64,000 bases of DNA from Alphaproteobacteria bacterium (GTDB lineage Bacteria > Pseudomonadota > Alphaproteobacteria > ATCC43930 > CGMCC-115725), in contig JAGWNF010000015.1 in the NCBI GenBank assembly GCA_028871455.1, forward strand, positions 1 through 64,000, read 5' to 3'. The position numbers and the translations under genes were made by a program. Below the pieces are notes generated by a model. The model was not told the origin of the DNA, ran no database searches, and worked only from the letters and a program-made list of their open reading frames with translations. Below, piece after piece: positions 1,152-24,290 of this stretch. Position 1 is the first letter of the stretch, and each line of letters begins with the position of its first letter.

Positions 1152-2234
1152 ATGTTAGCTTCGCGCATGACAAAAAAAGAAGCACTGCCGATAGGCTGCG
1201 GCAACCCGACATTTGTCGTCGCCGAAATGGCCTGGGCGCATGACGGCTCGATCGAGAAGGCAATGCGCATCGTCGACGGCGCCGCAGACGCCAAAGCCGA
1301 TGCAATCAACCTGCATCTGACGAAGCTTCTGGATTACATGGTGCCGTTTTACGGAGCTGGTCCGGGGCGCGTCTCGGGTAGCCGCACGACGACCGAGATC
1401 TATAAATATCTAGAGGGGATCAATCTCAGCTTTGACGCGGTCGCTGAGCTCGCCGCACATGCCAAGGCGCGAGGTTTGAAGGTTTCTGTCATGTGCAACG
1501 ACGAAGCCAGCGCTGCCTTCGCTGGCAAGTCGATCCACCCTGACATCCTGATGATCCATCCATCGTCGGTCGGCGATGAACGATTACTACGGATGATCGC
1601 GGCCCAGGGAACGCCGCTTGTCATATATACGGGGGCACTGAAACTCGGCGAGATCGAGACCGCAGTGCAATGGGCCACGGCCGAAGGCAACGGCGCGCTC
1701 ATCCTCCAGCACGGATTTCAGAGCTACCCGACGCCGCTCTCGGAAAACCGACTGCGTGCAATCGAGACGCTCAAGCGACAATTCGGGTTTCCAGTAGCGT
1801 TTGCCGACCACACCGATGGCGACGACCCTATGGCAATGATCGTCCCGCTTCTCGCGATCGCCATGGGTGCGGATGCCGTTGAGAAGCACATCACTTATGA
1901 CCGTGCGGCCAAAGGAGAAGATTACGAATCGTCGCTCGACCCGGCGCAATTCGCGGTGTTCGTGGACAGGCTGCGGAAGGCGGAAAGCACGTTCGGCAGC
2001 GCCAGTTGGCGCCCCTTATCGGACCGCGAACTGAAGTACCGCGAGGTGGTTCGCAAGCGTGCCGTTGCGGCGCGACCGATACGCGCCGGCACTCTGCTGA
2101 CGCGGGATCTCGTCGCCTTCAAGCGGTGTGACCGGGGCCTCTATCCCGAAGAGCTTACCGGCCTTCTCGGTTCTGTGTCGGTCGCGCAAGATCTCGACGC
2201 GAACGTACCGCTTGAGCGGGACCTGCTGAAATGA
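1152..2234 (+). CDS. Divergent NeuB-family (N-acetylneuraminate/SpsE-like) synthase
   Basis: 360 residues with the NeuB layout: a TIM-barrel synthase domain (about 15-285) and a C-terminal SAF/antifreeze-like domain (about 298-358). NeuB enzymes condense phosphoenolpyruvate with an N-acetyl-hexose to make a nonulosonic acid. The two metal-binding histidines are present (His220 in ADHT, His246 in EKHI). Other signatures differ: NHNG is AHDG (29-32), the KFQ lysine is Asn53, the KIASGD lysine position is Met134, and the LLHC cysteine is replaced (LQHG). The enzyme may therefore use another aldose or donor. No clear Shine-Dalgarno precedes either in-frame ATG (1152, 1167). Its stop overlaps the start of the cytidylyltransferase (ATGA), making it the first gene of a coupled operon. 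Confidence 0.8.
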   Translation: MLASRMTKKEALPIGCGNPTFVVAEMAWAHDGSIEKAMRIVDGAADAKADAINLHLTKLLDYMVPFYGAGPGRVSGSRTTTEIYKYLEGINLSFDAVAELAAHAKARGLKVSVMCNDEASAAFAGKSIHPDILMIHPSSVGDERLLRMIAAQGTPLVIYTGALKLGEIETAVQWATAEGNGALILQHGFQSYPTPLSENRLRAIETLKRQFGFPVAFADHTDGDDPMAMIVPLLAIAMGADAVEKHITYDRAAKGEDYESSLDPAQFAVFVDRLRKAESTFGSASWRPLSDRELKYREVVRKRAVAARPIRAGTLLTRDLVAFKRCDRGLYPEELTGLLGSVSVAQDLDANVPLERDLLK

Positions 2235-3034
2235 ACGGTCACACCGCCGCGTTCATATCGGTACGAAACAAGGCCACCCGCCTGCCAAACAAAAGCCTCC
2301 TCAAGATCCATGGGCGCAGTACGATCGAACATCTCATCGACCGGGTGAAGCGGTCGCAAAAAGCCGATTTGATCGTGATGACGACGTCGATCAGCCCCGA
2401 AGACGATCCGTTGGCCGAAATCGCCGCAGCCAACGGAATTGCCTGTTTTCGCGGCAGCGAAGCCGACAAGCTGCAGCGTTATCTCGATGCCGCCGATGCC
2501 CACGACGTCGATTTCTTCGCCGTGGTCGACGGCGACGACCTTTTTGCCGATGCCATCTTCATCGACCAGATCATCGCCGCATGGCAGGACACCCGGGCGG
2601 ACTATATCGTCGTCGATCGGCTGCCCGTGGGTGCTACGGCTTTCGGCGTACGGCGCAAGGCGATGCGCGAAATTGTCGCGCTGAAGGCGGAAAACGATAC
2701 TGAAGTCTGGGGCGGATATTTCACGGAAACCGGCATGTTCGACTGCCGGTTTCTCGTGCCGTCTGATTCGGAATTTGCCCGGCCGGAAATCCGGATGACG
2801 CTCGACTATCCCGAAGACTTCAAATTCTTTACACTGGTGTTCGACGAACTCTACGTCTCGGGCGAAGTCTTCTCGTTTCAGGCGATCATGATTCTGCTGC
2901 GTCAGCGGCCGGAAATCGCCGCAGTCAACCGCGACGTTCAACATCGATACGAAGCCCGCTTGCGCGAGTCGGCCCCCGTGCGGCTGAAGCCGGCTTCCGC
3001 GCGGATCGGCACTGGTGGGCAGCGCGGCCGATGA
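2231..3034 (+). CDS. SpsF/NeuA-type cytidylyltransferase
   Basis: 267 residues resembling the cytidylyltransferase family that activates 3-deoxy-ulosonic acids as CMP-sugars (NeuA, KdsB, SpsF). The nucleotide-binding start is SVRNKATRLPNKSLL at about 11-25, a variant of the ARxGSxRLPxK loop. It is followed by TTSISPEDDPL, the SpsF-like FRGSEADKLQRY segment and the VVDGDD acidic metal motif near residue 98. The start codon overlaps the stop of the NeuB-like gene, so the two products are probably made in step and act on the same sugar. It is the only cytidylyltransferase in the window and may have to serve both NeuB proteins. Substrate assignment is inference. Confidence 0.75.
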   Translation: MNGHTAAFISVRNKATRLPNKSLLKIHGRSTIEHLIDRVKRSQKADLIVMTTSISPEDDPLAEIAAANGIACFRGSEADKLQRYLDAADAHDVDFFAVVDGDDLFADAIFIDQIIAAWQDTRADYIVVDRLPVGATAFGVRRKAMREIVALKAENDTEVWGGYFTETGMFDCRFLVPSDSEFARPEIRMTLDYPEDFKFFTLVFDELYVSGEVFSFQAIMILLRQRPEIAAVNRDVQHRYEARLRESAPVRLKPASARIGTGGQRGR

Positions 3035-4050
3035 AATTCCTTGTCGTCGGCCTCGGCTCGATGGGCAAGCGTCGTATCCGCAATCTGAAGCGATTGAACG
3101 CCGGAGCGATCGTCGGCTTCGATCCACGGCCCGATCGCCGACGGGAGGTCGAGCAGCGCTATGGAATCGAGGTCGTTGCCGATCTCGATCGATCGCTCGG
3201 CCAGTCTTTTCTCGACGCGGTTGTAGTTTCGACGCCTCCCGATATGCACGTGGAAATCGCCAGGTCAGCGCTCGAGCGCGGACTGCATGTTTTCACGGAG
3301 GCGGGCACCAGCAGCGAAGGCATGGACGCCCTTGTCGCGCTGTCCAAGCGCCGGCGCCTCGTCGCCGCTCCGTCCTGCACCATGCGCTTTCATCCCTCAG
3401 TCAAGAAAATGCACGAGCTTGTTGAAGGCAACGCGATCGGAAAAGTACTGGCGTTCACGCACCATGCGGGCCAATACCTGCCGGATTGGCATCCCGCCGA
3501 AGACTACCGCAAATTTTACGTCAGCCGCCGCAAGACGGGAGCATGCCGGGAAATCGTGCCGTTCGAGCTGACCTGGCTCAACTGGCTCATGGGCGCCCAG
3601 CCAGAGCTTGTAACCGGTTTGCGCGGCAAGGTGTCCACCCTCGATTGCGACATTGACGATCTCTATCACACGCTGTTGCGGTATCCGGGCGGCGCGCTTT
3701 GCCATCTGCAAGTCGACGCGATCGCACAGCCCGCGGTTCGCGCCACCCGGCTGATCGGCCAAACCGGCACGATCGAATGGGTCGCCGCGGCAAACGCCGT
3801 TCGGGTCTATAATGCAGCAGCCAAGACGTGGACCGACTATCCTGAACCGGAGCCGATGGTTGAGCCCGGCTATAGCGAGATGTCGCCGGAGGGCATGTAT
3901 GTCGATGAAATGGCTGCATTTGCCGCGGCGTGCCGCGGTGAGCGGCCCTATCCCTACTCCTTCGACGAAGATATGCGCTGCCTTGAAGTGCTCTATGCCG
4001 CCGAGCGCGCGGCGGACGGCAAGTCCCAGGTAGAGCTGCCGCGAGCGTGA
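3031..4050 (+). CDS. Gfo/Idh/MocA-family NAD(P)-dependent sugar oxidoreductase
   Basis: 339 residues. The N-terminal Rossmann fold starts MKFLVVGLGSMGKRRIRNL, with the GxGxxG dinucleotide motif at about 8-13, and STPPDMH follows near residue 70. The TEAGTSSEG stretch around 90 sits where family members have the EKP motif, so the usual catalytic lysine is not obvious. The C-terminal domain binds the sugar. Family members oxidise or reduce a hydroxyl of a sugar or sugar nucleotide. The start ATG overlaps the preceding stop and its own stop overlaps the next start. A dehydrogenase directly before an aminotransferase suggests oxidation of a hydroxyl to a ketone or aldehyde that is then aminated. 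Confidence 0.75.
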   Translation: MKFLVVGLGSMGKRRIRNLKRLNAGAIVGFDPRPDRRREVEQRYGIEVVADLDRSLGQSFLDAVVVSTPPDMHVEIARSALERGLHVFTEAGTSSEGMDALVALSKRRRLVAAPSCTMRFHPSVKKMHELVEGNAIGKVLAFTHHAGQYLPDWHPAEDYRKFYVSRRKTGACREIVPFELTWLNWLMGAQPELVTGLRGKVSTLDCDIDDLYHTLLRYPGGALCHLQVDAIAQPAVRATRLIGQTGTIEWVAAANAVRVYNAAAKTWTDYPEPEPMVEPGYSEMSPEGMYVDEMAAFAAACRGERPYPYSFDEDMRCLEVLYAAERAADGKSQVELPRA

Positions 4051-5360
4051 TCATGCCGGATCAGATTTCCAACAATCCTGGGCGACTCACGCATGCCCTG
4101 ATCCCCGGTGGCGCCCATACCTACAGCAAGGGCGACGATCAGTTTCCGGCCAATGCGCCGCGCTATCTTGAGCGTGGCAAGGGCTGCCGCGTATGGGATG
4201 AATCCGGCCGCGAATTCATCGACTGGACTGCGGGACTGCGCAGCATGTCGCTCGGCTACGGCATCGAGGCGGTGAATCAGGCGGCGATGGCGCAGATCGG
4301 CAAGGGATCCAACTTCGGCCGGCCAAGCTACATTGAGACCGAGTTCGCCCAGGATCTCGTCAGTCTCGTGCCCTGCGCCGAGATGGCAAAATTCGCCAAG
4401 AACGGCTCGACCGTCACGACCGCCGCTGTCAAGCTCGCACGCGCATACACTGGCCGCGACTACGTCGCCTTGTGCAAGGATCATCCGTTCTTTTCCTACG
4501 ATGATTGGTTCATCGGGACAACACCGTGCAATGCTGGAATTCCCAAAGCCTTTTCGGATCTGTCGCTGACCTTCCGCTATAACGATAGCGCCAGCCTCGA
4601 GCGCCTGTTTGCCGAACATCCTTCCCAAATCGCCTGCGTCATATTGGAGGCCGCAACCACGGATCATCCGCGTGATGGCTTCCTGCAAACGGTAAAGGAG
4701 CTGTGCCGGACAAATGGCGCAGTTTTCATCCTCGACGAAATGATCACCGGGTTCCGCTGGCACCTGAATGGGGCTCAGCGCTACTACCATGTCGAGCCGG
4801 ACCTGGCGACTTTCGGCAAAGGGCTTGCGAATGGGTTTTCTGTCGCCGCGTTGGTTGGCAAGCGCGAGATCATGGATCTCGGCGGGCTCCGCCACGATCT
4901 GCCACGAGTTTTCTTGATCTCAACGACACACGGTGCCGAGAACCACGCCCTGGCGGCGGCTCGAGCGACCCTCAAGGTGTTCCGCGACGAACCTGTAATA
5001 GAACACATGTGGAAGACCGGACAGGCGTTGATCGACGGCCTCAGTGCCGCCGCGCGCGACACTGGTACTGCACCCTTCTTCGAAGCCGGGGGAATCGCCT
5101 GCAGCCCTTATTACGTCACTAAGGATCGGAGCGGTGTGGTGTCTCTCGCCATGCGCACCCTTTTTCTCCAGGAAATGATCAAAGCCGGCGTGCTCATCAA
5201 TTACCTCGCGCCGAATTTTAGCCATCACCCTGCGGACGTAGAGAAAACAGTTGAGGCGGCGCGCCGGTGCCTGAAAGTCTACGCACGCGCGCTTGAGGAC
5301 GGCTGGGAACGCTACCTCGATGGTCCGCCGATCAAACCGGTTTTCCGGCCCTACAACTGA
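4047..5360 (+). CDS. Class III (GSA-aminomutase-like) PLP aminotransferase
   Basis: 437 residues, fold type I, most like glutamate-1-semialdehyde 2,1-aminomutase relatives found in glycan loci. Visible are the N-terminal GGAHTYSKGDDQFP segment, the cofactor-binding ILDEMITGFR (about 228-237) and the Schiff-base lysine Lys258 in TFGKGLANGFS. The true hemL is a haem gene, but this copy sits inside a sugar operon, so amination of a keto or aldehydo sugar made by the adjacent dehydrogenase is more likely. The GTG at 4047 overlaps the preceding TGA; an ATG at 4053 is a possible alternative start. The NeuB/LegI gene begins 8 bases after its stop. Confidence 0.75.
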   Translation: MIMPDQISNNPGRLTHALIPGGAHTYSKGDDQFPANAPRYLERGKGCRVWDESGREFIDWTAGLRSMSLGYGIEAVNQAAMAQIGKGSNFGRPSYIETEFAQDLVSLVPCAEMAKFAKNGSTVTTAAVKLARAYTGRDYVALCKDHPFFSYDDWFIGTTPCNAGIPKAFSDLSLTFRYNDSASLERLFAEHPSQIACVILEAATTDHPRDGFLQTVKELCRTNGAVFILDEMITGFRWHLNGAQRYYHVEPDLATFGKGLANGFSVAALVGKREIMDLGGLRHDLPRVFLISTTHGAENHALAAARATLKVFRDEPVIEHMWKTGQALIDGLSAAARDTGTAPFFEAGGIACSPYYVTKDRSGVVSLAMRTLFLQEMIKAGVLINYLAPNFSHHPADVEKTVEAARRCLKVYARALEDGWERYLDGPPIKPVFRPYN

Positions 5361-5368
5361 TTGTCACG

Positions 5369-6454
5369 ATGCTCGCCGGCTCTCGAAATCGCGTTTTCGT
5401 CATCGCTGAGGCCGGTGTCAATCACAACGGCGATCCTGAACGCGCGCTGAACATGGTGGAAGCCGCGGCGCGCGCCGGCGCGGACGCGGTCAAGTTCCAG
5501 ACCTTTCGGGCGGAGCTGCTGGCCTCGCCAGAGGCTCCCAAGGCCCCGTACCAGGCACGCACGACCGACGCCGGTGAAACTCAGATCGAAATGCTGCGTC
5601 GGCTCGAGCTCGATGAGCGCGCACATCGCCGCCTCGCATCGGCGGCCAAGGATGCTGGTATTGAATTCATGTCGACGCCTTTCGATCTCAATAGCCTTGA
5701 GCTGCTGCTCGCGATCGGCATCAGGCGCATCAAGATTGCCTCCGGCGACATCACCAATGGCCCACTGCTGCTGAGGGCCGCGCGGTCGGGTTTGCCGACG
5801 ATCCTCTCGACGGGCATGGCATTACTGGGTGAAGTACGCGATGCACTCGGCGTCTTGGCTTGGGGGTATCGGCGACAAGCCGATCCGCCGTCGTTGGCGG
5901 CGCTGCGCGACGATTACGCGCGAGACTCCGGCGGAACAACGTTTGCCGAGAAGGTAATGCTATTGCAATGCGCAAGCGCCTATCCGGCGCCGCCTCAGGC
6001 GATCAATCTACGCGCCATGGATACGCTGGCGAACACCTTCCGTCTTGCCGTGGGCCTATCTGATCACAGCGTTGGCATCGCAATCGCAATCGCCGCCGCC
6101 GGCCGCGGCGCTGCAGTGATCGAGAAGCACTTCACACTCGACCGGACGCTGCCCGGCCCCGATCATGCCGCGTCGATCGAACCCGATGAGCTTGCCGCGA
6201 TGATCCGTGCCATTCGTGAAGTCGAGCGGGCCATGGGGAACGGTCGGAAAGAACCTGCCGAGGCAGAACAACCAAATATCCGAGCCGCACGCCGCGGCCT
6301 GATCGCCGCTCGCGATATCGCCGCCGGGACTCCAATCACCGTCGACATGTTTGTGGTAGTGCGCCCAGCGACCGGCATATCACCGATTCGCATCTGGGAC
6401 TTTCTCGGCAAGCCTGCAGCGAGGACGTATCGGATGGGTGAACCGATCGATTGA
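5369..6454 (+). CDS. neuB: N-acetylneuraminate/legionaminate synthase (NeuB/LegI type)
   Basis: 361 residues carrying the full canonical NeuB signature: AEAGVNHNGD (13-22), VKFQTF (41-46), MSTPFD (101-106), KIASGD (122-127), STGM (147-150), SDHS with His233, and EKHFTLDR with His254. A C-terminal SAF domain follows. It condenses phosphoenolpyruvate with an N-acetylated mannose derivative in the cytoplasm. With LegB, LegC, a LegH-like acetyltransferase and NeuC/LegG in the same locus, the likely product is a legionaminic-type acid (5,7-diamido-3,5,7,9-tetradeoxy-nonulosonate) rather than plain sialic acid. It is the last gene of the five-gene operon. About 200 bases without a convincing gene follow it. 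Confidence 0.88.
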   Translation: MLAGSRNRVFVIAEAGVNHNGDPERALNMVEAAARAGADAVKFQTFRAELLASPEAPKAPYQARTTDAGETQIEMLRRLELDERAHRRLASAAKDAGIEFMSTPFDLNSLELLLAIGIRRIKIASGDITNGPLLLRAARSGLPTILSTGMALLGEVRDALGVLAWGYRRQADPPSLAALRDDYARDSGGTTFAEKVMLLQCASAYPAPPQAINLRAMDTLANTFRLAVGLSDHSVGIAIAIAAAGRGAAVIEKHFTLDRTLPGPDHAASIEPDELAAMIRAIREVERAMGNGRKEPAEAEQPNIRAARRGLIAARDIAAGTPITVDMFVVVRPATGISPIRIWDFLGKPAARTYRMGEPID

Positions 6455-15102: not shown

Positions 15103-16266
15103 ATGAATCGACGCAAGATCGCCGTTGTCACAGGCTCAAGGGCCGATTACGGGCTGCTAAGCAACATCATGGATTCGATCCGCAAAAGCTCGAAACTCAC
15201 GTTGCAGATCCTCGTCACCGGCATGCATCTCGACGACAAGTTCGGCGCCACCTGGCGGCAGATCGAAGCCGACGGATTCGTCGTCGATCGTAAGGTCCCA
15301 AGCGGAATTGCGGGCAGCCGACCGGCCGATATCGGCCGTGCCATGGGCAAGACGCTTTCCGGTTTTGCCGATGCATTCGAAACGTCACCGCCGGACATCG
15401 CATTAGTTCTGGGCGACCGCTTTGAAATCTTTTGCGCGGTCGCCGCCGCACTGCCGTTCAATATCCCGGTGGCGCATATCCACGGCGGCGAGCAAACGCA
15501 AGGCTCGATCGATGATTGCTTCAGAAACGCCATTTCGAAGATGGCGCACTTGCATTTTGTCGCGACGCCTCTCTACGGCAAACGCGTCATTCAGATGGGC
15601 GAATCGCCGGACCGCGTGCACGTCGTCGGTGCCCCCGGGCTCGACGCACTAGCGCGGATCAAGTTTCTGGGGCGTGCGGAGCTCGAACGTGCCATTGGTT
15701 TGCCTCTCCGACCGCCGGTCCTGCTGGCAACCTATCACCCGGTTACCGTCGAGCCCGAACGCATCGGTGCGCGCGTCGCAGCATTTCTCGACGGGCTTGC
15801 GCGGAGCGATGTCGGCACCATCGTCTTCACCGGGGTTAACGCGGATACGGGCCATGACGAGGTCATTCGCCGCATACAGGCCTTCGTCGCAGCCCGGCGT
15901 GACCGCGCCGTCTATCGCGTGTCACTGGGCCAGCAGCTCTATCTGAGCCTTGCGAAACTCAGCGATGCGATCGTGGGCAACTCTTCGAGCGGCATCATCG
16001 AAATGCCCTCGCTGGGCGTGCCCGTCGTCAACGTCGGCGACCGTCAAAGCGGACGCGTCAAGGCGCGATCGATCATCGACTGCGAGGAAACCGCGGATGC
16101 CGTCGCGAGCGCCATCCGGCAAGCATTGACGCCTGAATTTCGTTCCCTGGCGCAACGCACCGAGAACCCCTATGGCGCGCCTGGTGCGCCCGCGCGGATC
16201 GTGACAGTGCTCGAACGGGTCGATCTTGCTGGGCTGGCACGCAAAAAATTCCACGACTTGCCTTGA
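15103..16266 (+). CDS. neuC: Hydrolysing UDP-N-acetylglucosamine 2-epimerase (NeuC/LegG type)
   Basis: 387 residues, GT-B-fold epimerase. The signatures are VVTGSRADYGLL (8-19), LVTGMHL (37-43), LGDRFE (103-108), the catalytic HIHGGEQTQGSIDD (about 125-138) and the C-terminal NSSSGIIEMPSLGVPVVNVGDRQ. NeuC/LegG enzymes release UDP and invert C2 of UDP-GlcNAc or UDP-2,4-diacetamido-2,4,6-trideoxyglucose, giving the aldose for NeuB/LegI. Since legB and legC are nearby, the trideoxy substrate is more likely here. It acts in the cytoplasm. It is convergent with the ABC exporter gene, with 9 bases between the stops. Confidence 0.85.
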   Translation: MNRRKIAVVTGSRADYGLLSNIMDSIRKSSKLTLQILVTGMHLDDKFGATWRQIEADGFVVDRKVPSGIAGSRPADIGRAMGKTLSGFADAFETSPPDIALVLGDRFEIFCAVAAALPFNIPVAHIHGGEQTQGSIDDCFRNAISKMAHLHFVATPLYGKRVIQMGESPDRVHVVGAPGLDALARIKFLGRAELERAIGLPLRPPVLLATYHPVTVEPERIGARVAAFLDGLARSDVGTIVFTGVNADTGHDEVIRRIQAFVAARRDRAVYRVSLGQQLYLSLAKLSDAIVGNSSSGIIEMPSLGVPVVNVGDRQSGRVKARSIIDCEETADAVASAIRQALTPEFRSLAQRTENPYGAPGAPARIVTVLERVDLAGLARKKFHDLP

Positions 16267-18243: not shown

Positions 18244-19227
18244 ATGAACTGGCAGGGGCGACGCGTCCTCGTCACCGGAGCCGGTGGCTTCATCGGCAGT
18301 CATCTCGTCGAGCATCTCGTTGCTGAAGGTGCACAGACGCGGGCGCTTATCCGATACACATCGGGTGGCAGCCGCGGCTGGCTCGAGGAGTCGACGGCGC
18401 GCAAGAATATCGAATTTGCGTTCGGCGATTTGCGGGACCGCGACAGCTTCCGGCATGCGATGAAGGGCGTTGACATCGTGTTCCATCTCGGTGCGTTGAT
18501 CGCGATCCCGTATTCGTATGACGCGCCGCTTAGCTACGTCGAGACCAACGTCGTCGGCACACTCAACGTTCTTGAGGCTGCGCGCACCGCTGGTGTTGGC
18601 CGGGTCGTTCACATCTCGACGAGCGAAACCTACGGAACAGCGCGCTACGTGCCGATCGATGAAACACATCCCTTGCAGGGGCAGTCGCCGTATTCGGCTT
18701 CGAAGATCGGCGCCGACATGCTGGCGCAATCTTATGGCTACTCGTTCGGACAAGAGGTCGTGATCATCCGTCCCTTCAACACTTTTGGCCCTCGTCAATC
18801 GACGCGTGCGGTGATTCCGACCATTATCAGCCAGGCATTGGCGTGTGATCGCATCCGGCTCGGCAATCTGTCACCGACCCGCGATCTCACGTTCGTTTCG
18901 GATACGGTTCTTGGAATTTTGGCGATTGGATCCTGCGACGACGCGGTGGGCCGAACAGTCAATCTCGGTTCGGGTCAGGAGATTTCGGTCGGCGATCTGA
19001 CCAAGCTGATCTGCAGAATGATCGGCCGCGAGGTTCCAATTCTCACCGACGCCGAACGCATCCGGCCAGAGAACAGCGAGGTGCAGCGCTTGGTTTCGAA
19101 TAACGCGCTGGCGCGCGAACTCGCCAATTGGACGCCCCGCACTTCGTTCCATGACGGACTCGCGGCCACGATCGCGTGGATCATGCGACACCTAGAGAGA
19201 TACAACTTTGGCCAATACACGAAGTGA
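18244..19227 (+). CDS. legB: NAD-dependent UDP-GlcNAc 4,6-dehydratase, LegB type
   Basis: 327 residues, extended short-chain dehydrogenase fold. The NAD motif is TGAGGFIGS (11-19), followed by GDLRDRDS, HLGALIAIPYSYDAP, STSETYG (125-131) and the catalytic YSASK (Tyr150, Lys154). The IAIPYSY and ARYVPIDETHPLQGQSPYSASKIGAD stretches are diagnostic of the LegB/Pen-type branch rather than PseB. It makes the UDP-4-keto-6-deoxy-GlcNAc substrate of LegC, the first step of legionaminic acid synthesis. AGGAG precedes the ATG at a good distance. The legC start lies inside its last codons (20-base overlap). Confidence 0.85.
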   Translation: MNWQGRRVLVTGAGGFIGSHLVEHLVAEGAQTRALIRYTSGGSRGWLEESTARKNIEFAFGDLRDRDSFRHAMKGVDIVFHLGALIAIPYSYDAPLSYVETNVVGTLNVLEAARTAGVGRVVHISTSETYGTARYVPIDETHPLQGQSPYSASKIGADMLAQSYGYSFGQEVVIIRPFNTFGPRQSTRAVIPTIISQALACDRIRLGNLSPTRDLTFVSDTVLGILAIGSCDDAVGRTVNLGSGQEISVGDLTKLICRMIGREVPILTDAERIRPENSEVQRLVSNNALARELANWTPRTSFHDGLAATIAWIMRHLERYNFGQYTK

Positions 19228-20407
19228 CGAGGCCCGCGTTTCTGCCGATGCGCCAATTCCTCTGAGCGTGCCGGTCTTGTCCGGACGCGAGTGGCAATAT
19301 GTGAAAGAGTGCCTCGACACGAATTGGGTTTCATCGGCCGGCCTGTTTATCGAGCGGTTCGAACGTGCCACCGCTGCCGCTCTCAACGCCGAGCACGCGG
19401 TCGCAGTCGTGAACGGTACGGCAGCTCTTCATCTGGCGATGGTTTTGCTTGGTGTCGGTCCCGGTGATGAAGTCGTAGTGCCGGCACTCACCTTCATCGC
19501 GACCGCAAACGCCGTTCGCTATACAGGCGCGGTACCAGCAATCCTTGATGTTGAGGCTGACTATTGGCAGCTCGATGCCGCCAAGCTTGAAGCCTTCTTG
19601 CGCGAAGGATGCATTCGACATAACGGCACCCTGTCGAACAAGGCAACGGGACGGCGGATCGCGGCGATTCTACCGGTGCACGCTCTCGGCCATCCTTGCG
19701 ACATGGACGCCATTATCGCTGTCGCTGATCCCTATGGAATTCCGGTCGTCGAGGATGCAGCCGAGGCAATTGGGGCGCGCTATAAGGGACGCTACGTCGG
19801 CACGATCGGCCGAATGGGCTGTCTCAGCTTCAACGGTAACAAGACAATCACGTGCGGCGGCGGCGGCATGATCCTGACCGGAGACGCAAAAATCGCCGCG
19901 CGGGCACGCTACTTGAGCAGTCAAGCCAAGGACGATGAGATTGCCTATGTCCACAGCGAGATCGGCTATAATTATCGACTGACGAACGTACTAGCCGCGA
20001 TCGGACTCGCTCAGATTGAGAAACTGGACGAACACATCGCGGCCAAAGAGAGGATTGCGCGCCGGTATTACGATGGCTTAGCGGGAATTCCCGGCCTAAC
20101 ACCGATGCTACAGGCAAATTGGGCTCAGAATGTCCACTGGCTGTTCACCATCCTCATCGATTCGACGCGCTTCGGCCTCGATAATATGACGCTCCTGAAC
20201 CGACTGCTCGAAGCGGGTATCGAGACGCGACCGCTGTGGCAGCCGATGCATCGCTCGTCGGCCCTGCGTGATGCCTTTGTGCACTCCGAAATTACGGTGG
20301 CCGATCGCGTGCATGCGCAGGCACTGAGTCTGCCCAGCTCGGTAAATCTGACACCCGAACAGCAGGATCGCGTGATCGCGAGCATCAAACAGGCTTCGCG
20401 AGCGTAA
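19208..20407 (+). CDS. legC: LegC-family PLP aminotransferase (UDP-4-amino-4,6-dideoxy-GlcNAc forming)
   Basis: 399 residues of the DegT/AHBA family. NGTAALHLAMVLLGVGPGDEV, VVEDAAEAIGA and the cofactor lysine Lys212 in SFNGNKTITCGGGGM identify the LegC subgroup, which has the FNGNK(T/I)ITxGGGGM motif. It transfers an amino group from glutamate to C4 of the LegB product. The start is a TTG at 19208 inside the legB 3' end, preceded by GAGAGA, so it is translationally coupled to legB. The GT42-like gene starts in its stop codon (TAATG). Confidence 0.85.
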   Translation: MANTRSDEARVSADAPIPLSVPVLSGREWQYVKECLDTNWVSSAGLFIERFERATAAALNAEHAVAVVNGTAALHLAMVLLGVGPGDEVVVPALTFIATANAVRYTGAVPAILDVEADYWQLDAAKLEAFLREGCIRHNGTLSNKATGRRIAAILPVHALGHPCDMDAIIAVADPYGIPVVEDAAEAIGARYKGRYVGTIGRMGCLSFNGNKTITCGGGGMILTGDAKIAARARYLSSQAKDDEIAYVHSEIGYNYRLTNVLAAIGLAQIEKLDEHIAAKERIARRYYDGLAGIPGLTPMLQANWAQNVHWLFTILIDSTRFGLDNMTLLNRLLEAGIETRPLWQPMHRSSALRDAFVHSEITVADRVHAQALSLPSSVNLTPEQQDRVIASIKQASRA

Positions 20408-21387
20408 TGATCGCTAACCGAGTAACCCGTGTCTGGCACGAAAGCGGCGTCCAAGGAACCGCTCGCCGCCTTGCCGCCTGGGCCTTAACCAAGATCGTAC
20501 ATCGCTGCGACCGCGCGGCCCGGGCGCTGCTTTCGCCACGATCGATGATGACCCTCGCCTCGCGCCAAACGGCGAGCCTCATCGCCGGAAACCGCGACCT
20601 CGCGGACCGCTATCGCGGTCAGCGCTGTTTCATTCTTGCCAGCGGTCCATCGACCTTGTCGCAGGATCTCACGCACCTCAGAGGCGAGTGTGTGATCGCC
20701 GTCAACGAAATGTTTCTTAGGACGCAACGTGATGGATTGAAGCCCATTACGCTGATGATACAGGACATCGAATATTTCGGGGACACGCCGGGCTACCGGA
20801 GGTTTCTCGAAGACCTCGAATTTGCCGCCCACAGTAGCGGCGCGGACGTCGTCTTTCCAGTTGGCGCGCATTGCGTGGTGACTGAACGGGGGCTCTTTCG
20901 CGATAATCCGCCGCGCTACTATTTGCCCGTTGGACGCCTTCTCAACTATCCGAGCGCTGAGGACGTGCCGCCGCTCGACTTCGCGGCCACGATTCCCGGC
21001 ATGCCCACAGTGACCCACACGGCAATTGCACTAGCGCTTTTCATGGGATTTTCCGAAATCTATCTCCTCGGAGTCGATCTAGACTTCATCGTAAACTCGA
21101 CGACCCCCATCCGTCACGGCTATGGTGCCAATCCGTACAACGAAAATGACCGCGTGCCAGCCGCAGCGCTATTCGCCAATAAAATGGGCTGGGATTATCC
21201 GACTCTCCTCGCTGAAGTCGCGGACCATCTGCGTAGTTACGCTCGGCTGCACGAGATCGCTGCATCGTCGGCGCAACGCCTCTACAACGCCAATCCGGGC
21301 GGCTTGTTAGAGACCGTCGAGCGGCGACCATACGAAAGCTTGTTTCAGCCGCCGGTCAGCCGCCGGACACTACAAGGATTGCCATAG
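20407..21387 (+). CDS. GT42/DUF115 (Maf)-like protein, candidate nonulosonosyltransferase
   Basis: 326 residues. An N-terminal basic, amphipathic stretch (1-70) is followed by CFILASGPSTLSQDL (74-88), matching the xGxGPSL nucleotide-binding loop of GT42 sialyltransferases, DUF115 and Maf flagellin glycosyltransferases. At 202-227 the segment VTHTAIALALFMGFSEIYLLGVDLDF corresponds to the conserved AIxxGYKEIYLxGxDF element of that superfamily. Start and stop (TAATG) overlap with legC, so it is co-translated with the pathway that makes the nonulosonic acid. I infer transfer of the CMP-activated sugar to a glycan or protein. It is shorter than typical Maf proteins. Its 3' end overlaps the convergent acetyltransferase gene by 43 bases. 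Confidence 0.55.
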   Translation: MIANRVTRVWHESGVQGTARRLAAWALTKIVHRCDRAARALLSPRSMMTLASRQTASLIAGNRDLADRYRGQRCFILASGPSTLSQDLTHLRGECVIAVNEMFLRTQRDGLKPITLMIQDIEYFGDTPGYRRFLEDLEFAAHSSGADVVFPVGAHCVVTERGLFRDNPPRYYLPVGRLLNYPSAEDVPPLDFAATIPGMPTVTHTAIALALFMGFSEIYLLGVDLDFIVNSTTPIRHGYGANPYNENDRVPAAALFANKMGWDYPTLLAEVADHLRSYARLHEIAASSAQRLYNANPGGLLETVERRPYESLFQPPVSRRTLQGLP

Positions 21388-21989
21388 GCAAGCGACCGCT
21401 CCGGCACGTCCTCGACAACAACGGAGCCGGCGCCGATCATTGCATGGGCGCCAACAGCACGGTTGTTGGAGACGACGGAGCCGGCGCCGATCATGGTCCA
21501 ATCACCGACCGCAACCGTTCCCGCCAGCACTACGCCGGGACAGAGATGCACACCCTCGCCGATTCGGCAATCGTGATCGACCCGCGCACCTGTGTTGATG
21601 ATTGCATGGCCACCGATGACGCTGTCGCAATTGATCACGGCGCCAGCGAAAACCACGGTTCCGGGACCGAAAGTCGACCGCGCCCCGACGATTGCGCTCG
21701 GATGGATAAGTGTTATCAGTTCCGCCCCTGAGCTGGCCAGTCGCCGGGCAATTTCACGGCGCACGCGTCCGTCGCCAATGGCAATTACGAAACGGCAGAC
21801 AGCCTTAAGCGCTTTATCGCCCAGTAGACTGTCATTGCCGAGGACGGGCACGCCATAAAACGACGCGTCGGGCGGCAGAGACGCATCGATCACACCGCGA
21901 ACTGGCAGGCTCGTCTTCTCGCACAAGTCGAGCACGACCTTCGCGTGCCCGCCAGCACCGATGAGAACCACCGGCTTTTGTGTCGTCAT
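21345..21989 (-). CDS. NeuD/PglD/LegH-like sugar N- or O-acetyltransferase
   Basis: 214 residues. The N-terminal PglD-type sugar-nucleotide domain starts VVLIGAGGHAKVVLDLCE (7-24), and a left-handed beta-helix of hexapeptide repeats runs from about 95 to 205. The catalytic histidine is expected in VDHDCRIGEG, matching PglD His125. LegH-type enzymes acetylate the 4-amino group of the LegC product; NeuD-type enzymes O-acetylate sialic acids. Because no other acetyltransferase is present, the LegH step is the best guess. It is convergent with, and overlaps, the GT42-like gene. Confidence 0.75.
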   Translation of the reverse strand: MTTQKPVVLIGAGGHAKVVLDLCEKTSLPVRGVIDASLPPDASFYGVPVLGNDSLLGDKALKAVCRFVIAIGDGRVRREIARRLASSGAELITLIHPSAIVGARSTFGPGTVVFAGAVINCDSVIGGHAIINTGARVDHDCRIGEGVHLCPGVVLAGTVAVGDWTMIGAGSVVSNNRAVGAHAMIGAGSVVVEDVPERSLAYGNPCSVRRLTGG

Positions 21990-22061: not shown

Positions 22062-24290
22062 CTACGCTGCGGGCCCGCTAGCAAGGTCAACCAACCGGTC
22101 GAGTGCATGACCATCGTTCGGCCAAGCATAATCTTCGACAAACTTTCGGCGGGAGGCTACGAATGCTGGCGGCTCTACTTCAGCATCGAGGCTGTCCATC
22201 ACGGCTCTCTCGAGATCGCATTCTTGTGTTACCCCTCGGGCAACGCCAGCTTCGACATAGTCATTCGATGGAAATTTGCGCCCCGTGAGATTGACCACAA
22301 TCAGGCGTCTACCGAGCAGAACAGCGTCGGACCCCACGGTCGAAAAATCCGTGATCACAGCATCAGCAGCAACAATCATCTCATGGATTTCCAGCGCCTC
22401 CACCACGGCAACGGCCGGTAGGGTCTTCGACCATTCATAAGCCTCGCGGCCAAAGCTCGGATGTGGACGAATGACGAGGACAGTGTCACCGCGACGGGCG
22501 CAGATCGCAGCTAGCGTGCTCACCCAGAGTCGCTCGTTCGGATCGATATAGGATGTGGCTAAGAGCAACATCTTCACGTTAGAGCGCACCTGAGTTGACA
22601 TCGCCGCCAACTCTCGGCGTATAGCCGCGCGGTCGAGGCGGCGCGCCTCATCGAGAAAAACGTTGCCCACAGGGCGCAAGCGGCTTGGATCGTAACCCAT
22701 CGCCACGAACGCATCGCGGCACTGCCGGCCATAGGTCCCGATTACCGACAGATTCCCCCAACCGATGATTGAAGCTGGATTGCCGGCTACCGTCACGACT
22801 GGCATGCTCACGGTACGCACGTTTTCGAAATTGGCGGCAAGCTGCGCGACATGGGCAGCGGTTCCCCAGTGCGGGAAGACGTGCACCGCATCAGGACGGG
22901 CGATCCGCAGGAGCTCGCGCATCTGTAGCATCTGATCGCGCGCGATCCGCAGCAGGACCGTCACTGTCGGGTCGGTAAGCCAGCTCAGGAAGGCCGCGCG
23001 CAGACCTTCATCAGCCATTGGCAGTGGCTGCCTCGTGATGATCGCCGCCGCATTCCGAAAATCTTGCTCGCTCGCTTGTCCAGCCGTTGGCTTTAGGCTT
23101 ATTTTGATGAAATCGGCATAGGAGACCTGGGGTGCAAACTCGACGCACGCCTTGGCGCTAGCACTTATGAATATGACCGTGCGACCGCGCTTGCGCAGGT
23201 GCCGGACCAGAAGTGTGGTGAGCGTGCTGAACGGCGTGCGCGGCTGTGCGTCGCAAATCACGACGGTCACGGGACGTTGTTTAATGAGATGACGGAATTG
23301 CAACTGTTGCTGTCGCGAAATATCCGGGACCAACGGTAGGAACACGGTGAACAGGTTGAGCAACCGCATCCGCCACATTCGCCGCTTGATTGATACAGGA
23401 AGATCGAGATCACCTTCTGGATTCAGATCGGACACAATCCGATAGAATGACGGCTCATCCCAGCATACTAGCGCGTCTGGCGCCGCCAATTGCACTAGCA
23501 TCGGCGCCGCGTGCTGCAGTATGCGGTCACCCAAAAAATCCCCACTCTCAATGATGATCGCCCGATTTTCAGCGGCGATGAGGCGCTTTACCGCGTTTTC
23601 GACGCGCGCGAGCTGAGAGACAGCAGAGTAACAATCGATATAGAAAAGCGCGAACGGATTAAAGTCGGCGATCGGCGGCACATCAGGATCGCACAACAAC
23701 CGGTCCATGAATGCTTGCGATCGGCGGTGTACGCCGATGTCAACGTCGCCTTCCGTCCATAAATCCTGAAGCGAAATGACCTCAAGCGGAACATCGGACG
23801 ATGTGCGCGCGTTAGAACGGCCCGATACCACCAAGCCGACCTTCTCATGGCCTGCTGACCGCAAAATCCTCAGTAGGCGATCGAAACCAGACTGGTTGAC
23901 TCCACTGGCCAGGAGAAACACGGAGCCGCGCCATCCCTCCAGGTCCGCCACGCTCACGTTCCTTCGTGCCAATGCATCTATGAACGCCGGTTCGCGCAGA
24001 GTGGACATGCGCCAGAACCGAACAAGCCTCTGCAATGCGCGACCAAACTTCGACCCCTGTAGGGTGTCGAACATTAGACGCGCAATCCGCTTAACCTTAG
24101 GAAACCAACGGTACCGCGCACCGATGGACACGATCAGCTTATGAATCCCGCGTCGCAGGCGCTCCATGAGGGACAACCCAGTAGCAGCAAACTGCCACAT
24201 ACCGAAGATGAACCGTACGAACCGCAGCCCAAGTAGGTTGCTCCGCCGTGCGCGTTCTATGATTTCGTCGATGCCGACCCGCGCTGTCAT
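22062..24290 (-). CDS. Large GT-B-fold glycosyl/glycerophosphotransferase-like protein
   Basis: 742 residues with no signal peptide and only weak hydrophobic stretches. The C-terminal half (about 380-735) has a GT-B look: VLVIRPHPSFGREAYEW and then ADAVITDFSTVGSDAVLLGRRLIVVNLTG, which resembles the nucleotide-binding site of CDP-glycerol glycerophosphotransferases and capsule glycosyltransferases. The N-terminal half (GWRGSVFLLASGVNQSGFDRLL and onward) reads like a second Rossmann-type domain that I do not recognise. It could be a two-domain polymerase adding alternating residues. It is monocistronic, between the acetyltransferase and the divergent GT4 gene. Confidence 0.5.
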   Translation of the reverse strand: MTARVGIDEIIERARRSNLLGLRFVRFIFGMWQFAATGLSLMERLRRGIHKLIVSIGARYRWFPKVKRIARLMFDTLQGSKFGRALQRLVRFWRMSTLREPAFIDALARRNVSVADLEGWRGSVFLLASGVNQSGFDRLLRILRSAGHEKVGLVVSGRSNARTSSDVPLEVISLQDLWTEGDVDIGVHRRSQAFMDRLLCDPDVPPIADFNPFALFYIDCYSAVSQLARVENAVKRLIAAENRAIIIESGDFLGDRILQHAAPMLVQLAAPDALVCWDEPSFYRIVSDLNPEGDLDLPVSIKRRMWRMRLLNLFTVFLPLVPDISRQQQLQFRHLIKQRPVTVVICDAQPRTPFSTLTTLLVRHLRKRGRTVIFISASAKACVEFAPQVSYADFIKISLKPTAGQASEQDFRNAAAIITRQPLPMADEGLRAAFLSWLTDPTVTVLLRIARDQMLQMRELLRIARPDAVHVFPHWGTAAHVAQLAANFENVRTVSMPVVTVAGNPASIIGWGNLSVIGTYGRQCRDAFVAMGYDPSRLRPVGNVFLDEARRLDRAAIRRELAAMSTQVRSNVKMLLLATSYIDPNERLWVSTLAAICARRGDTVLVIRPHPSFGREAYEWSKTLPAVAVVEALEIHEMIVAADAVITDFSTVGSDAVLLGRRLIVVNLTGRKFPSNDYVEAGVARGVTQECDLERAVMDSLDAEVEPPAFVASRRKFVEDYAWPNDGHALDRLVDLASGPAA

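What the first reader, a model, noticed from the sequence alone, without database searches (positions are those of the whole stretch)
1152..5360. Coupled synthase-cytidylyltransferase-dehydrogenase-aminotransferase cassette: possible undescribed amino-ulosonic acid
Seen: four genes overlap stop to start (ATGA, ATGA, GTGA) and encode a divergent NeuB, an SpsF-type cytidylyltransferase, a Gfo/Idh/MocA dehydrogenase and a class III aminotransferase. Known: NeuB plus NeuA make CMP-nonulosonic acids, and in the Kdo8N pathway a dehydrogenase/aminotransferase pair turns a hydroxyl into an amine on a ulosonic acid. Inference: this cassette may make a CMP-activated acid with an extra amino group, distinct from the legionaminic acid of the same locus.
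Basis: partly seen in the sequence, partly recalled or inferred. Interest (0 to 1): 0.75.

Follow-up and report, generated by a model that had tools for sequence, protein, structure and literature searches.

The report
Four-gene amino-nonulosonic acid cassette
Four tightly packed genes, found together in scattered bacteria and archaea and often near genes for a sialic-acid-like sugar, look like a kit that adds an amino group to such a sugar and activates it for the cell surface; one of them is a sugar synthase relative that has lost the site for its usual partner molecule.

Summary
The four genes are real, in the stated order, and form a conserved cassette: a NeuB paralog ("NeuBx"), an SpsF-type cytidylyltransferase, a Gfo/Idh/MocA-fold protein and a class III aminotransferase. 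A named scan found 22 NeuBx loci in bacteria and archaea, Asgard included; 10 keep the whole order and others show fusions among the parts. (1) NeuBx is one clade (support 100/99) with the NeuB fold and metal histidines, but 22 of 23 lack both presumed PEP-binding lysines and one lacks one, so an ordinary PEP-dependent synthase is doubtful. GfoX likewise lacks the usual EKP lysine. (2) 17 of 22 NeuBx genomes also carry a canonical NeuB. In both Legionella genomes examined, the cassette's cytidylyltransferase is the only CTP_transf_3 member besides KdsB, so it most likely activates the legionaminic-type acid or a derivative. Best reading: a tailoring and activation module that makes a CMP-activated amino derivative of a legionaminic-type acid, rather than a second, parallel acid. 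The window's own genome has another NeuA-like enzyme, so two products remain possible there. Product, aminated carbon and NeuBx reaction are untested. My paper searches did not surface this cassette.

The parts
1152..2234 (+). NeuBx: NeuB-fold paralog with barrel and SAF domain; PEP-site lysine positions hold N53 and M134; metal histidines H220 and H246 and SAF Arg325 kept (ATG at 1167 is another possible start)
2231..3034 (+). SpsFx: SpsF/KdsB-type cytidylyltransferase (CTP_transf_3)
3031..4050 (+). GfoX: Gfo/Idh/MocA-fold protein with E-A in place of the EKP motif and a conserved GQYLPDWHP...CREIVPFE stretch
4047..5360 (+). AT3x: class III aminotransferase, NF004856/PRK06209 type; PLP lysine kept (possible ATG start at 4053)
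5369..6454 (+). canonical NeuB (legionaminic/sialic acid synthase type), presumed source of the acid that the cassette acts on
   Evidence: (429 bits, cut-off 400)
15103..16266 (+). NeuC/LegG-type UDP-sugar 2-epimerase/hydrolase
   Evidence: 431 bits, cut-off 236
18244..19227 (+). LegB-type 4,6-dehydratase
   Evidence: 441 bits, under its cut-off of 475
19208..20407 (+). LegC-type aminotransferase
   Evidence: 452 bits, cut-off 420
21345..21989 (-). NeuD/LegH-type acetyltransferase
   Evidence: 215 bits, cut-off 161

Best explanation
The cassette is a tailoring and activation module of a legionaminic-type (nonulosonic acid) pathway. The neighbouring LegB, LegC, NeuD, NeuC and canonical NeuB make a di-N-acyl nonulosonic acid (inferred from families). 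GfoX, by NAD-dependent oxidation of a hydroxyl, and AT3x, by PLP-dependent transamination of the ketone, then replace a hydroxyl by an amine (inferred). SpsFx transfers CMP to the acid (inferred from family, residues and, in Legionella, from being the only candidate found). NeuBx, a metal-dependent NeuB-fold enzyme that has lost the usual PEP site, probably acts on the acid or its open-chain sugar without PEP, for example by retro-aldol/aldol epimerisation at C4 or by condensation with a donor other than PEP (speculation). The product would be a CMP-activated amino-nonulosonic acid for a surface polysaccharide; C8 is favoured only by analogy with published C8 tailoring enzymes and with a reported 8-amino nonulosonic acid.
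For: Same four genes in the same order in 10 of 22 named NeuBx loci across Pseudomonadota, Nitrospirota, Chloroflexota and Thermoplasmatota. A cytidylyltransferase directly follows NeuBx in 18 of 19 rows tested, against 6 of 49 other NeuB rows. Fusions tie the parts together: SpsF-Gfo (L104), SpsF-AT3 (L114 and 10 of 27 class-wide loci), Gfo-AT3 (L065). Aminotransferases of another lineage stand in the same place in L110 and L112 (quick tree), so an amination step seems kept by function. Canonical NeuB over 250 bits in 17 of 22 NeuBx genomes, on the same contig as NeuBx in L. moravica, L. bononiensis and Azospirillum soli. In both Legionella genomes the only CTP_transf_3 matches are KdsB and SpsFx; their NeuB-NeuC-NeuD-LegC loci show no NeuA. 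PEP-site lysines: second absent in 23 of 23 NeuBx rows, first in 22 of 23; both present in 46 of 46 rows outside the NeuBx and HGxQ groups. AT3 keeps the PLP lysine in 48 of 48. Precedent: EpaA, a cytidylyltransferase-reductase fusion, with EpaB, an SDR, converts pseudaminic acid to its C8 epimer (PMC12053666 passages); an SDR of the same Pfam family (checked for L109) has relatives in 9 of 22 NeuBx loci.
Against: The window's own genome has a further NeuA/PseF-like cytidylyltransferase on contig C1 beside a CBS-nucleotidyltransferase gene, and Azospirillum soli has six CTP_transf_3 members, so plain CMP-legionaminic acid could be made separately there. GfoX lacks the EKP lysine in 12 of 12 aligned proteins, which weakens a simple dehydrogenase role. 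Asgard loci L103 and L106 have NeuBx-SpsFx without GfoX or AT3 in the stretches held, and L113 has a Gfo with EKP and no AT3, so NeuBx-SpsFx can work without amination. L101 has NeuBx without SpsFx beside it. Relatives nearest to the NeuBx clade keep at least one lysine and can be paired or fused with SpsF, so the old role of the pair was probably synthase plus activator. Five of 22 NeuBx genomes show no canonical NeuB over 250 bits.
Confidence: 0.5

Rival explanations
1. One reading: NeuBx still condenses PEP with another aldose, binding PEP in a new way, and SpsFx, GfoX and AT3x turn that second ulosonic acid into a separate CMP-activated amino acid, parallel to CMP-legionaminic acid.
For: Fold match to NeuB over 339 residues with SAF domain, Z 34.7, rmsd 3.3; metal histidines kept in 23 of 23; 13 of the 17 aligned members outside the window's subclade carry Arg where canonical NeuB has the Ser of STGM, a possible substitute; relatives with at least one lysine pair or fuse with SpsF; the window genome has another NeuA-like enzyme for the canonical product.
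Against: The Arg is Tyr in the window's subclade and Ala in Asgards, so no one positive residue replaces the lysines; in two Legionella genomes no other CTP_transf_3 enzyme but KdsB is left for the canonical NeuB product.
Confidence: 0.25
2. GfoX and AT3x act before NeuB, making an amino-sugar precursor (a nucleotide sugar or free aldose) that NeuBx or NeuB then uses, as WlbA/WbpB with their aminotransferases do for 3-amino sugars (recalled).
For: The GfoX model matches dehydrogenases that act on sugars, GenD2, KanD2 and WlbA among them, at Z 34 to 36, tied with many others; three annotated AT3 relatives sit in polysaccharide clusters without NeuB.
Against: Fusions join AT3 and Gfo to the cytidylyltransferase, the last step; gene order puts them after it.
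Confidence: 0.12
3. NeuBx has no catalytic role of its own (a binding or scaffold protein) and the cassette is otherwise an ordinary CMP-nonulosonate synthetase with accessory enzymes.
For: Loss of PEP lysines.
Against: Metal histidines, the N-terminal Glu, the Tyr and the SAF Arg are invariant over 22 rows from bacteria and archaea, and the model is confident, mean pLDDT 90.8, which suggests a working active site.
Confidence: 0.08

Closest known systems
EpaA/EpaB (pseudaminic to 8-epipseudaminic acid, Acinetobacter prophages; PMC12053666, passages)
   Same: A cytidylyltransferase domain joined to redox tailoring of a nonulosonic acid; CTP_transf_3 fusions; adh_short_C2-like SDR in several NeuBx loci.
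   Different: No aminotransferase, no NeuB paralog; EpaA's second domain is an aldo-keto reductase; no member of that SDR family was found in the window's first 24.5 kb.
lga + ela/aci modules (8-epilegionaminic and acinetaminic acids; PMC9676051, PMC5595891, passages)
   Same: A legionaminic pathway followed by a few extra genes that alter the acid; in the listed ela and aci modules lgaG (the CMP-Leg synthetase) is not named.
   Different: ElaA-C and AciA-E sequences were not compared here; the known products are epimers, not amines.
KdnB/KdnA Kdo8N pathway (Shewanella; PMC5125639 passage, otherwise recalled)
   Same: Oxidation then transamination of a ulosonic acid.
   Different: KdnB is an iron-containing alcohol dehydrogenase, not Gfo-fold; eight-carbon acid; no NeuB paralog (recalled).
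Canonical NeuB/LegI (TIGR03569)
   Same: Barrel plus SAF fold, metal histidines, sugar-side residues.
   Different: NeuBx lacks one or both PEP-site lysines and the window's copy scores 191 against a cut-off of 400.
PRK06209/NF004856 'glutamate-1-semialdehyde 2,1-aminomutase'
   Same: AT3x passes this model (638 bits, cut-off 486).
   Different: Annotated relatives lie in polysaccharide clusters; the name is unlikely to state the function.

Membership tests
PEP-dependent nonulosonate synthase (NeuB) | barrel plus SAF fold | tested here: met
   PF03102 and SAF matches; VIA-align Z 34.7, rmsd 3.3, 339 residues to 2wqp
PEP-dependent nonulosonate synthase (NeuB) | two metal-binding histidines (His215, His236 of the meningococcal enzyme) | tested here: met
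   23 of 23 NeuBx rows; that they bind the metal is recalled
PEP-dependent nonulosonate synthase (NeuB) | PEP-site lysines (Lys53, Lys129) | tested here: not met
   Lys129 position: 0 of 23; Lys53 position: 1 of 23 (L099); 46 of 46 for both in rows outside the NeuBx and HGxQ groups. Lys129 is in the active-site list of PMC6795526 (passages); that both bind PEP is recalled
PEP-dependent nonulosonate synthase (NeuB) | condensation of PEP with an aldose | not testable with these tools
   needs an assay
CMP-ulosonate cytidylyltransferase (KdsB/NeuA/SpsF) | CTP_transf_3 domain and its N-terminal R..R-L/F-P-x-K and C-terminal D-Y-x-x-D residues | tested here: met
   44 bits, cut-off 22.6; residues kept in the 18 aligned SpsFx; that these residues define the family is recalled
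CMP-ulosonate cytidylyltransferase (KdsB/NeuA/SpsF) | transfer of CMP to a ulosonic acid | not testable with these tools
   needs an assay; in two Legionella genomes it is the only CTP_transf_3 match besides KdsB
Gfo/Idh/MocA dehydrogenase | Rossmann domain and C-terminal domain | tested here: met
   PF01408, PF22725; Z 36.0, rmsd 2.1, 309 residues to 6nor
Gfo/Idh/MocA dehydrogenase | EKP motif lysine (recalled as catalytic) | tested here: not met
   E-A invariant in 12 of 12 aligned GfoX, one of which (L098) lies outside the cassette place; the Asgard L113 Gfo, not in that set, keeps EKP; L099 and the cut L118 were not aligned
Class III aminotransferase, PRK06209 type | model score over cut-off and PLP lysine | tested here: met
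   638 bits, cut-off 486; Lys 48 of 48, Asp 48 of 48; their roles are recalled
Kdo8N pathway (KdnA/KdnB) | dehydrogenase of the iron-containing alcohol dehydrogenase family | tested here: not met
   the cassette's only dehydrogenase-like gene is Gfo-fold; KdnB is FeADH (PMC5125639 passage)
EpaA/EpaB-type C8 tailoring | cytidylyltransferase fused to a tailoring enzyme plus adh_short_C2 SDR | tested here: inconclusive
   not fused in the window and no such SDR family member found in its first 24.5 kb; fusions in L104, L114 and SDR in 9 of 22 relatives

The most novel reading that the evidence does not exclude
NeuBx is a NeuB-fold enzyme that no longer uses PEP: a metal-dependent enzyme acting on nonulosonic acids (a retro-aldol/aldol C4 epimerase or a synthase with another donor), which together with a cytidylyltransferase, an atypical Gfo protein and a class III aminotransferase makes a CMP-activated amino-nonulosonic acid in bacteria and archaea, with its NeuBx-SpsFx core present in Asgard archaea.
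Probability: 0.35. Interest if true: 0.8.

Novelty: new variant of a known kind. Interest (0 to 1): 0.62.

Why it matters
Nonulosonic acids decorate bacterial and archaeal surfaces and flagella, and new ones are predicted from gene clusters by family names. Here two such names would mislead: a "sialic acid synthase" without the expected PEP site and a "glutamate-1-semialdehyde aminomutase" that seems to belong to a surface-sugar pathway. If confirmed, the cassette gives a marker for amino-nonulosonic acids, a new chemistry for the NeuB fold, and candidate genes for amino-modified nonulosonic acids already seen by chemistry, such as the 8-amino acid reported for Flexibacter maritimus (PMC3210612 passages).

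Tried and rejected
Literature: ten searches listed no paper on a NeuB-SpsF-Gfo-class III aminotransferase cassette; I saw listings for most and passages of eleven papers, and most subscription journals are not held, so absence is weak. The L. pneumophila serogroup 6 and 12 O-antigen cluster lists a class III aminotransferase next to a cytidylyltransferase with a NeuB and two dehydrogenases some genes away (PMC3694923 passages); I could not tell whether its NeuB is of the NeuBx kind. Serogroup 1 has a second NeuB-family gene, ORF 9, of unproven role (PMC3766260, section 10 and passages); not compared.

Considered and dropped: a role of AT3x in haem synthesis (annotated relatives lie in polysaccharide clusters; whether the genome has another hemL was not tested). 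Sinorhizobium plasmids gave the closest plasmid aminotransferases (54 percent); the two stretches fetched show no NeuB, so they say nothing of the cassette. The Flexibacter/Tenacibaculum maritimum link could not be tested: no such genome was reached. Fold searches are second looks at Foldseek hits and GfoX rows are tied, so no nearest enzyme is claimed.

Errors made and corrected: L104's Gfo was first read in a wrong frame and replaced. One search's map let antisense frames mask genes in L110, L111 and L115-L118; the genes were read. The 22-row NeuBx alignment left out L112 and used L090 for L097; one search includes L112. Rows under 280 aa and duplicates were dropped before the tree, and the columns of the lysines were not removed from it. 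The five NeuBx genomes without canonical NeuB over 250 bits were not given to the cytidylyltransferase search (18 genomes, 17 of the 22 plus the window's).
Full report
What is there. The window holds four + strand genes at 1152-2234, 2231-3034, 3031-4050 and 4047-5360 with stop-start overlaps, followed 8 bases later by a canonical NeuB gene at 5369-6454. Pfam and NCBIfam name them NeuB-like with SAF, CTP_transf_3, Gfo/Idh/MocA and class III aminotransferase. I call them NeuBx, SpsFx, GfoX and AT3x. AT3x passes the model NF004856/PRK06209 (638 bits, cut-off 486), whose name, glutamate-1-semialdehyde aminomutase, is unlikely to be its function. NeuC, LegB-like, LegC and NeuD genes lie at 15-22 kb, and a Wzt/Wzm-like export pair, under the models' cut-offs, at 16.3-18.0 kb. 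The window starts at the end of its contig.

The cassette is conserved. Within the order, 1 of 42 other genomes (G312) has a NeuBx at 67 percent identity; the other six matches listed at E up to 1e-30 have 31-36 percent. In a sample of 398 genomes of the phylum, four besides the window's match at E up to 1e-38, at 31-34 percent. G312 carries all four genes in order. A scan of a collection of 84,980 species genomes with two peptide patterns from two aligned NeuBx gave 46 pattern matches, of which 22 encode a relative, at 40-73 percent identity; relatives without those exact patterns would be missed. They come from Alpha-, Beta- and Gammaproteobacteria, a Deltaproteobacteria assembly, Nitrospirae, Chloroflexi, Thermoplasmatota, Hadesarchaea, Methanomethylicales, Asgard archaea and two unnamed bacteria. 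Ten of the 22 keep NeuBx-SpsFx-GfoX-AT3 in order (L097, L102, L104, L105, L108, L109, L110, L112, L115, L117); three end at the contig edge just after NeuBx (L100, L111, L116), L118 ends within GfoX; eight differ (L098, L099, L101, L103, L106, L107, L113, L114). L097 is the same stretch as G312's L090. A cytidylyltransferase directly follows NeuBx in 18 of 19 rows tested, against 6 of 49 other NeuB rows; 3 and 1 rows at contig ends and the G312 row were skipped, and one of the six, L075, is of the neighbouring HGxQ group.

Fusions. SpsF and Gfo are one frame in L104; SpsF and the aminotransferase are one frame in L114 and in 10 of 27 class-wide aminotransferase loci (L048-L074); Gfo and the aminotransferase in L065; a lysine-bearing NeuB relative and SpsF in L095. 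Those 27 loci are from the best hits of a search in which 245 of 289 genomes had some match and 2 of 289 passed the cut-off; 20 of the 27 hold a NeuB in the stretch fetched, one of them (L061) a short fragment. The aminotransferases of L110, L112 and L114 belong to a lineage apart from the window's (quick tree without bootstrap), as if amination had been supplied more than once.

NeuBx is not an ordinary NeuB. In a tree of 73 NeuB rows the 23 NeuBx form one side of a branch with support 100/99. The lysine that aligns with Lys129 of the meningococcal synthase is absent in 23 of 23 NeuBx and the one aligning with Lys53 in 22 of 23 (L099 keeps it); both are present in 46 of 46 rows outside the NeuBx and HGxQ groups. 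Lys129 is in the list of active-site residues of PMC6795526 (passages); that both lysines bind PEP is recalled. The threonine of STPF is changed in 22 of 22 aligned rows, the serines of ASG and STG in 20 and 21 of 22. Kept in 22 of 22 are both metal histidines, the glutamate of the N-terminal motif, the tyrosine and the SAF arginine. A model from the 22-row alignment has mean pLDDT 90.8 and matches NeuB structures over the whole length, Z 34.7, rmsd 3.3, 339 residues for 2wqp. Four neighbouring sequences (HGxQ group) share the HGxQ motif but keep one or both lysines, and some pair or fuse with SpsF, so the pair is probably old and the loss derived; the tree is unrooted, so this is inference. 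In 13 of 17 aligned NeuBx outside the window's subclade the STG serine is Arg, which could in principle bind a phosphate; the window's subclade has Tyr and Asgards Ala. Loss of the known site is shown by alignment; loss of PEP use is inferred.

GfoX and AT3x. GfoX has E-A where the family has E-K-P (recalled) in 12 of 12 aligned proteins and shares an invariant GQYLPDWHP stretch; L113, an Asgard, has a lower-scoring Gfo with EKP. Its model (pLDDT 91.9) matches many sugar dehydrogenases at tied Z, GenD2 and KanD2 among them. AT3 proteins keep the PLP lysine and aspartate in 48 of 48.

One line or two. Seventeen of 22 NeuBx genomes hold a canonical NeuB over 250 bits; the other five are metagenome assemblies. 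In L. moravica, L. bononiensis and Azospirillum soli it lies 18-33 kb away on the same contig, with NeuC and LegC, in Legionella also NeuD, but no NeuA in the stretches read. A whole-genome search of 18 genomes (17 of the 22 and the window's) found only KdsB and SpsFx in both Legionella species, SpsFx alone in G705 and G710, and only the SpsF-AT3 fusion in G711; the others have two to seven matches, Azospirillum soli six and the window's genome three (KdsB identities of the Legionella matches). So in these Legionella genomes, as far as the drafts go, the product of the canonical NeuB has no other CTP_transf_3 enzyme than SpsFx to activate it besides KdsB. This favours a single line from a legionaminic-type acid through the cassette. 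Against it, the window's genome has a PseF/NeuA-like enzyme on contig C1 (140 bits, under that model's cut-off of 206).

Mechanism and analogies. Published tailoring of nonulosonic acids uses similar parts: EpaA joins a cytidylyltransferase to a reductase and with the SDR EpaB inverts C8 of pseudaminic acid (PMC12053666, passages); lga-ela and lga-aci modules in Acinetobacter modify legionaminic acid (PMC9676051, PMC5595891, passages); B. subtilis spsF is needed for legionaminic acid to reach the spore surface (PMC7439481, passages). An SDR whose L109 member is adh_short_C2 has relatives in 9 of 22 NeuBx loci, in five of them after AT3 and in L114 after the SpsF-AT3 fusion. An 8-amino nonulosonic acid was reported from Flexibacter maritimus (PMC3210612, passages). 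On this basis I propose oxidation and transamination of a hydroxyl, C8 by analogy only, and CMP activation by SpsFx; NeuBx may invert C4 by retro-aldol/aldol chemistry or use another donor. Steps shown: gene order, families, residues, co-occurrence. Steps inferred: every reaction.

Verdict.

Noticed in passing
L090:17475-18647 (same gene in L097), L104:11550-13460, L065:232-1317: Another aberrant NeuB paralog keeps both PEP-site lysines but has Pro or Thr at the second metal histidine and Asp at the STG serine, the mirror image of NeuBx; in L097 and L104 it lies downstream of the cassette.
   Followed up: partly
L100:8230-9237, L107:2590-3681, L115:8907-9941; also L101 and L112 further off: A radical SAM/SPASM gene lies next to or within about 10 kb of NeuBx in five loci; role unknown.
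   Followed up: partly
L102, L104, L105, L109, after AT3: A carbon-nitrogen hydrolase gene followed by an SDR gene sits directly after the aminotransferase, perhaps trimming or adding an acyl or amidine group.
   Followed up: partly
G000:C1, L187:7377-9136: The window's genome has a NeuA/PseF-like cytidylyltransferase beside a CBS-nucleotidyltransferase gene in another polysaccharide cluster, though both of its NeuB matches are in the window.
   Followed up: yes
L043-L045 (plasmids): Close relatives of AT3x named glutamate-1-semialdehyde aminomutase lie in polysaccharide clusters beside glycosyltransferase, GDP-fucose or CDP-glucose type genes and DUF4910 genes without NeuB; the family name looks wrong for them.
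   Followed up: partly
window 22062-24290, minus strand: A 742 aa protein with weak matches to surface carbohydrate proteins (TIGR04396, Glyphos_transf, Epimerase_2) could be the transferase that uses the CMP sugar.
   Followed up: no
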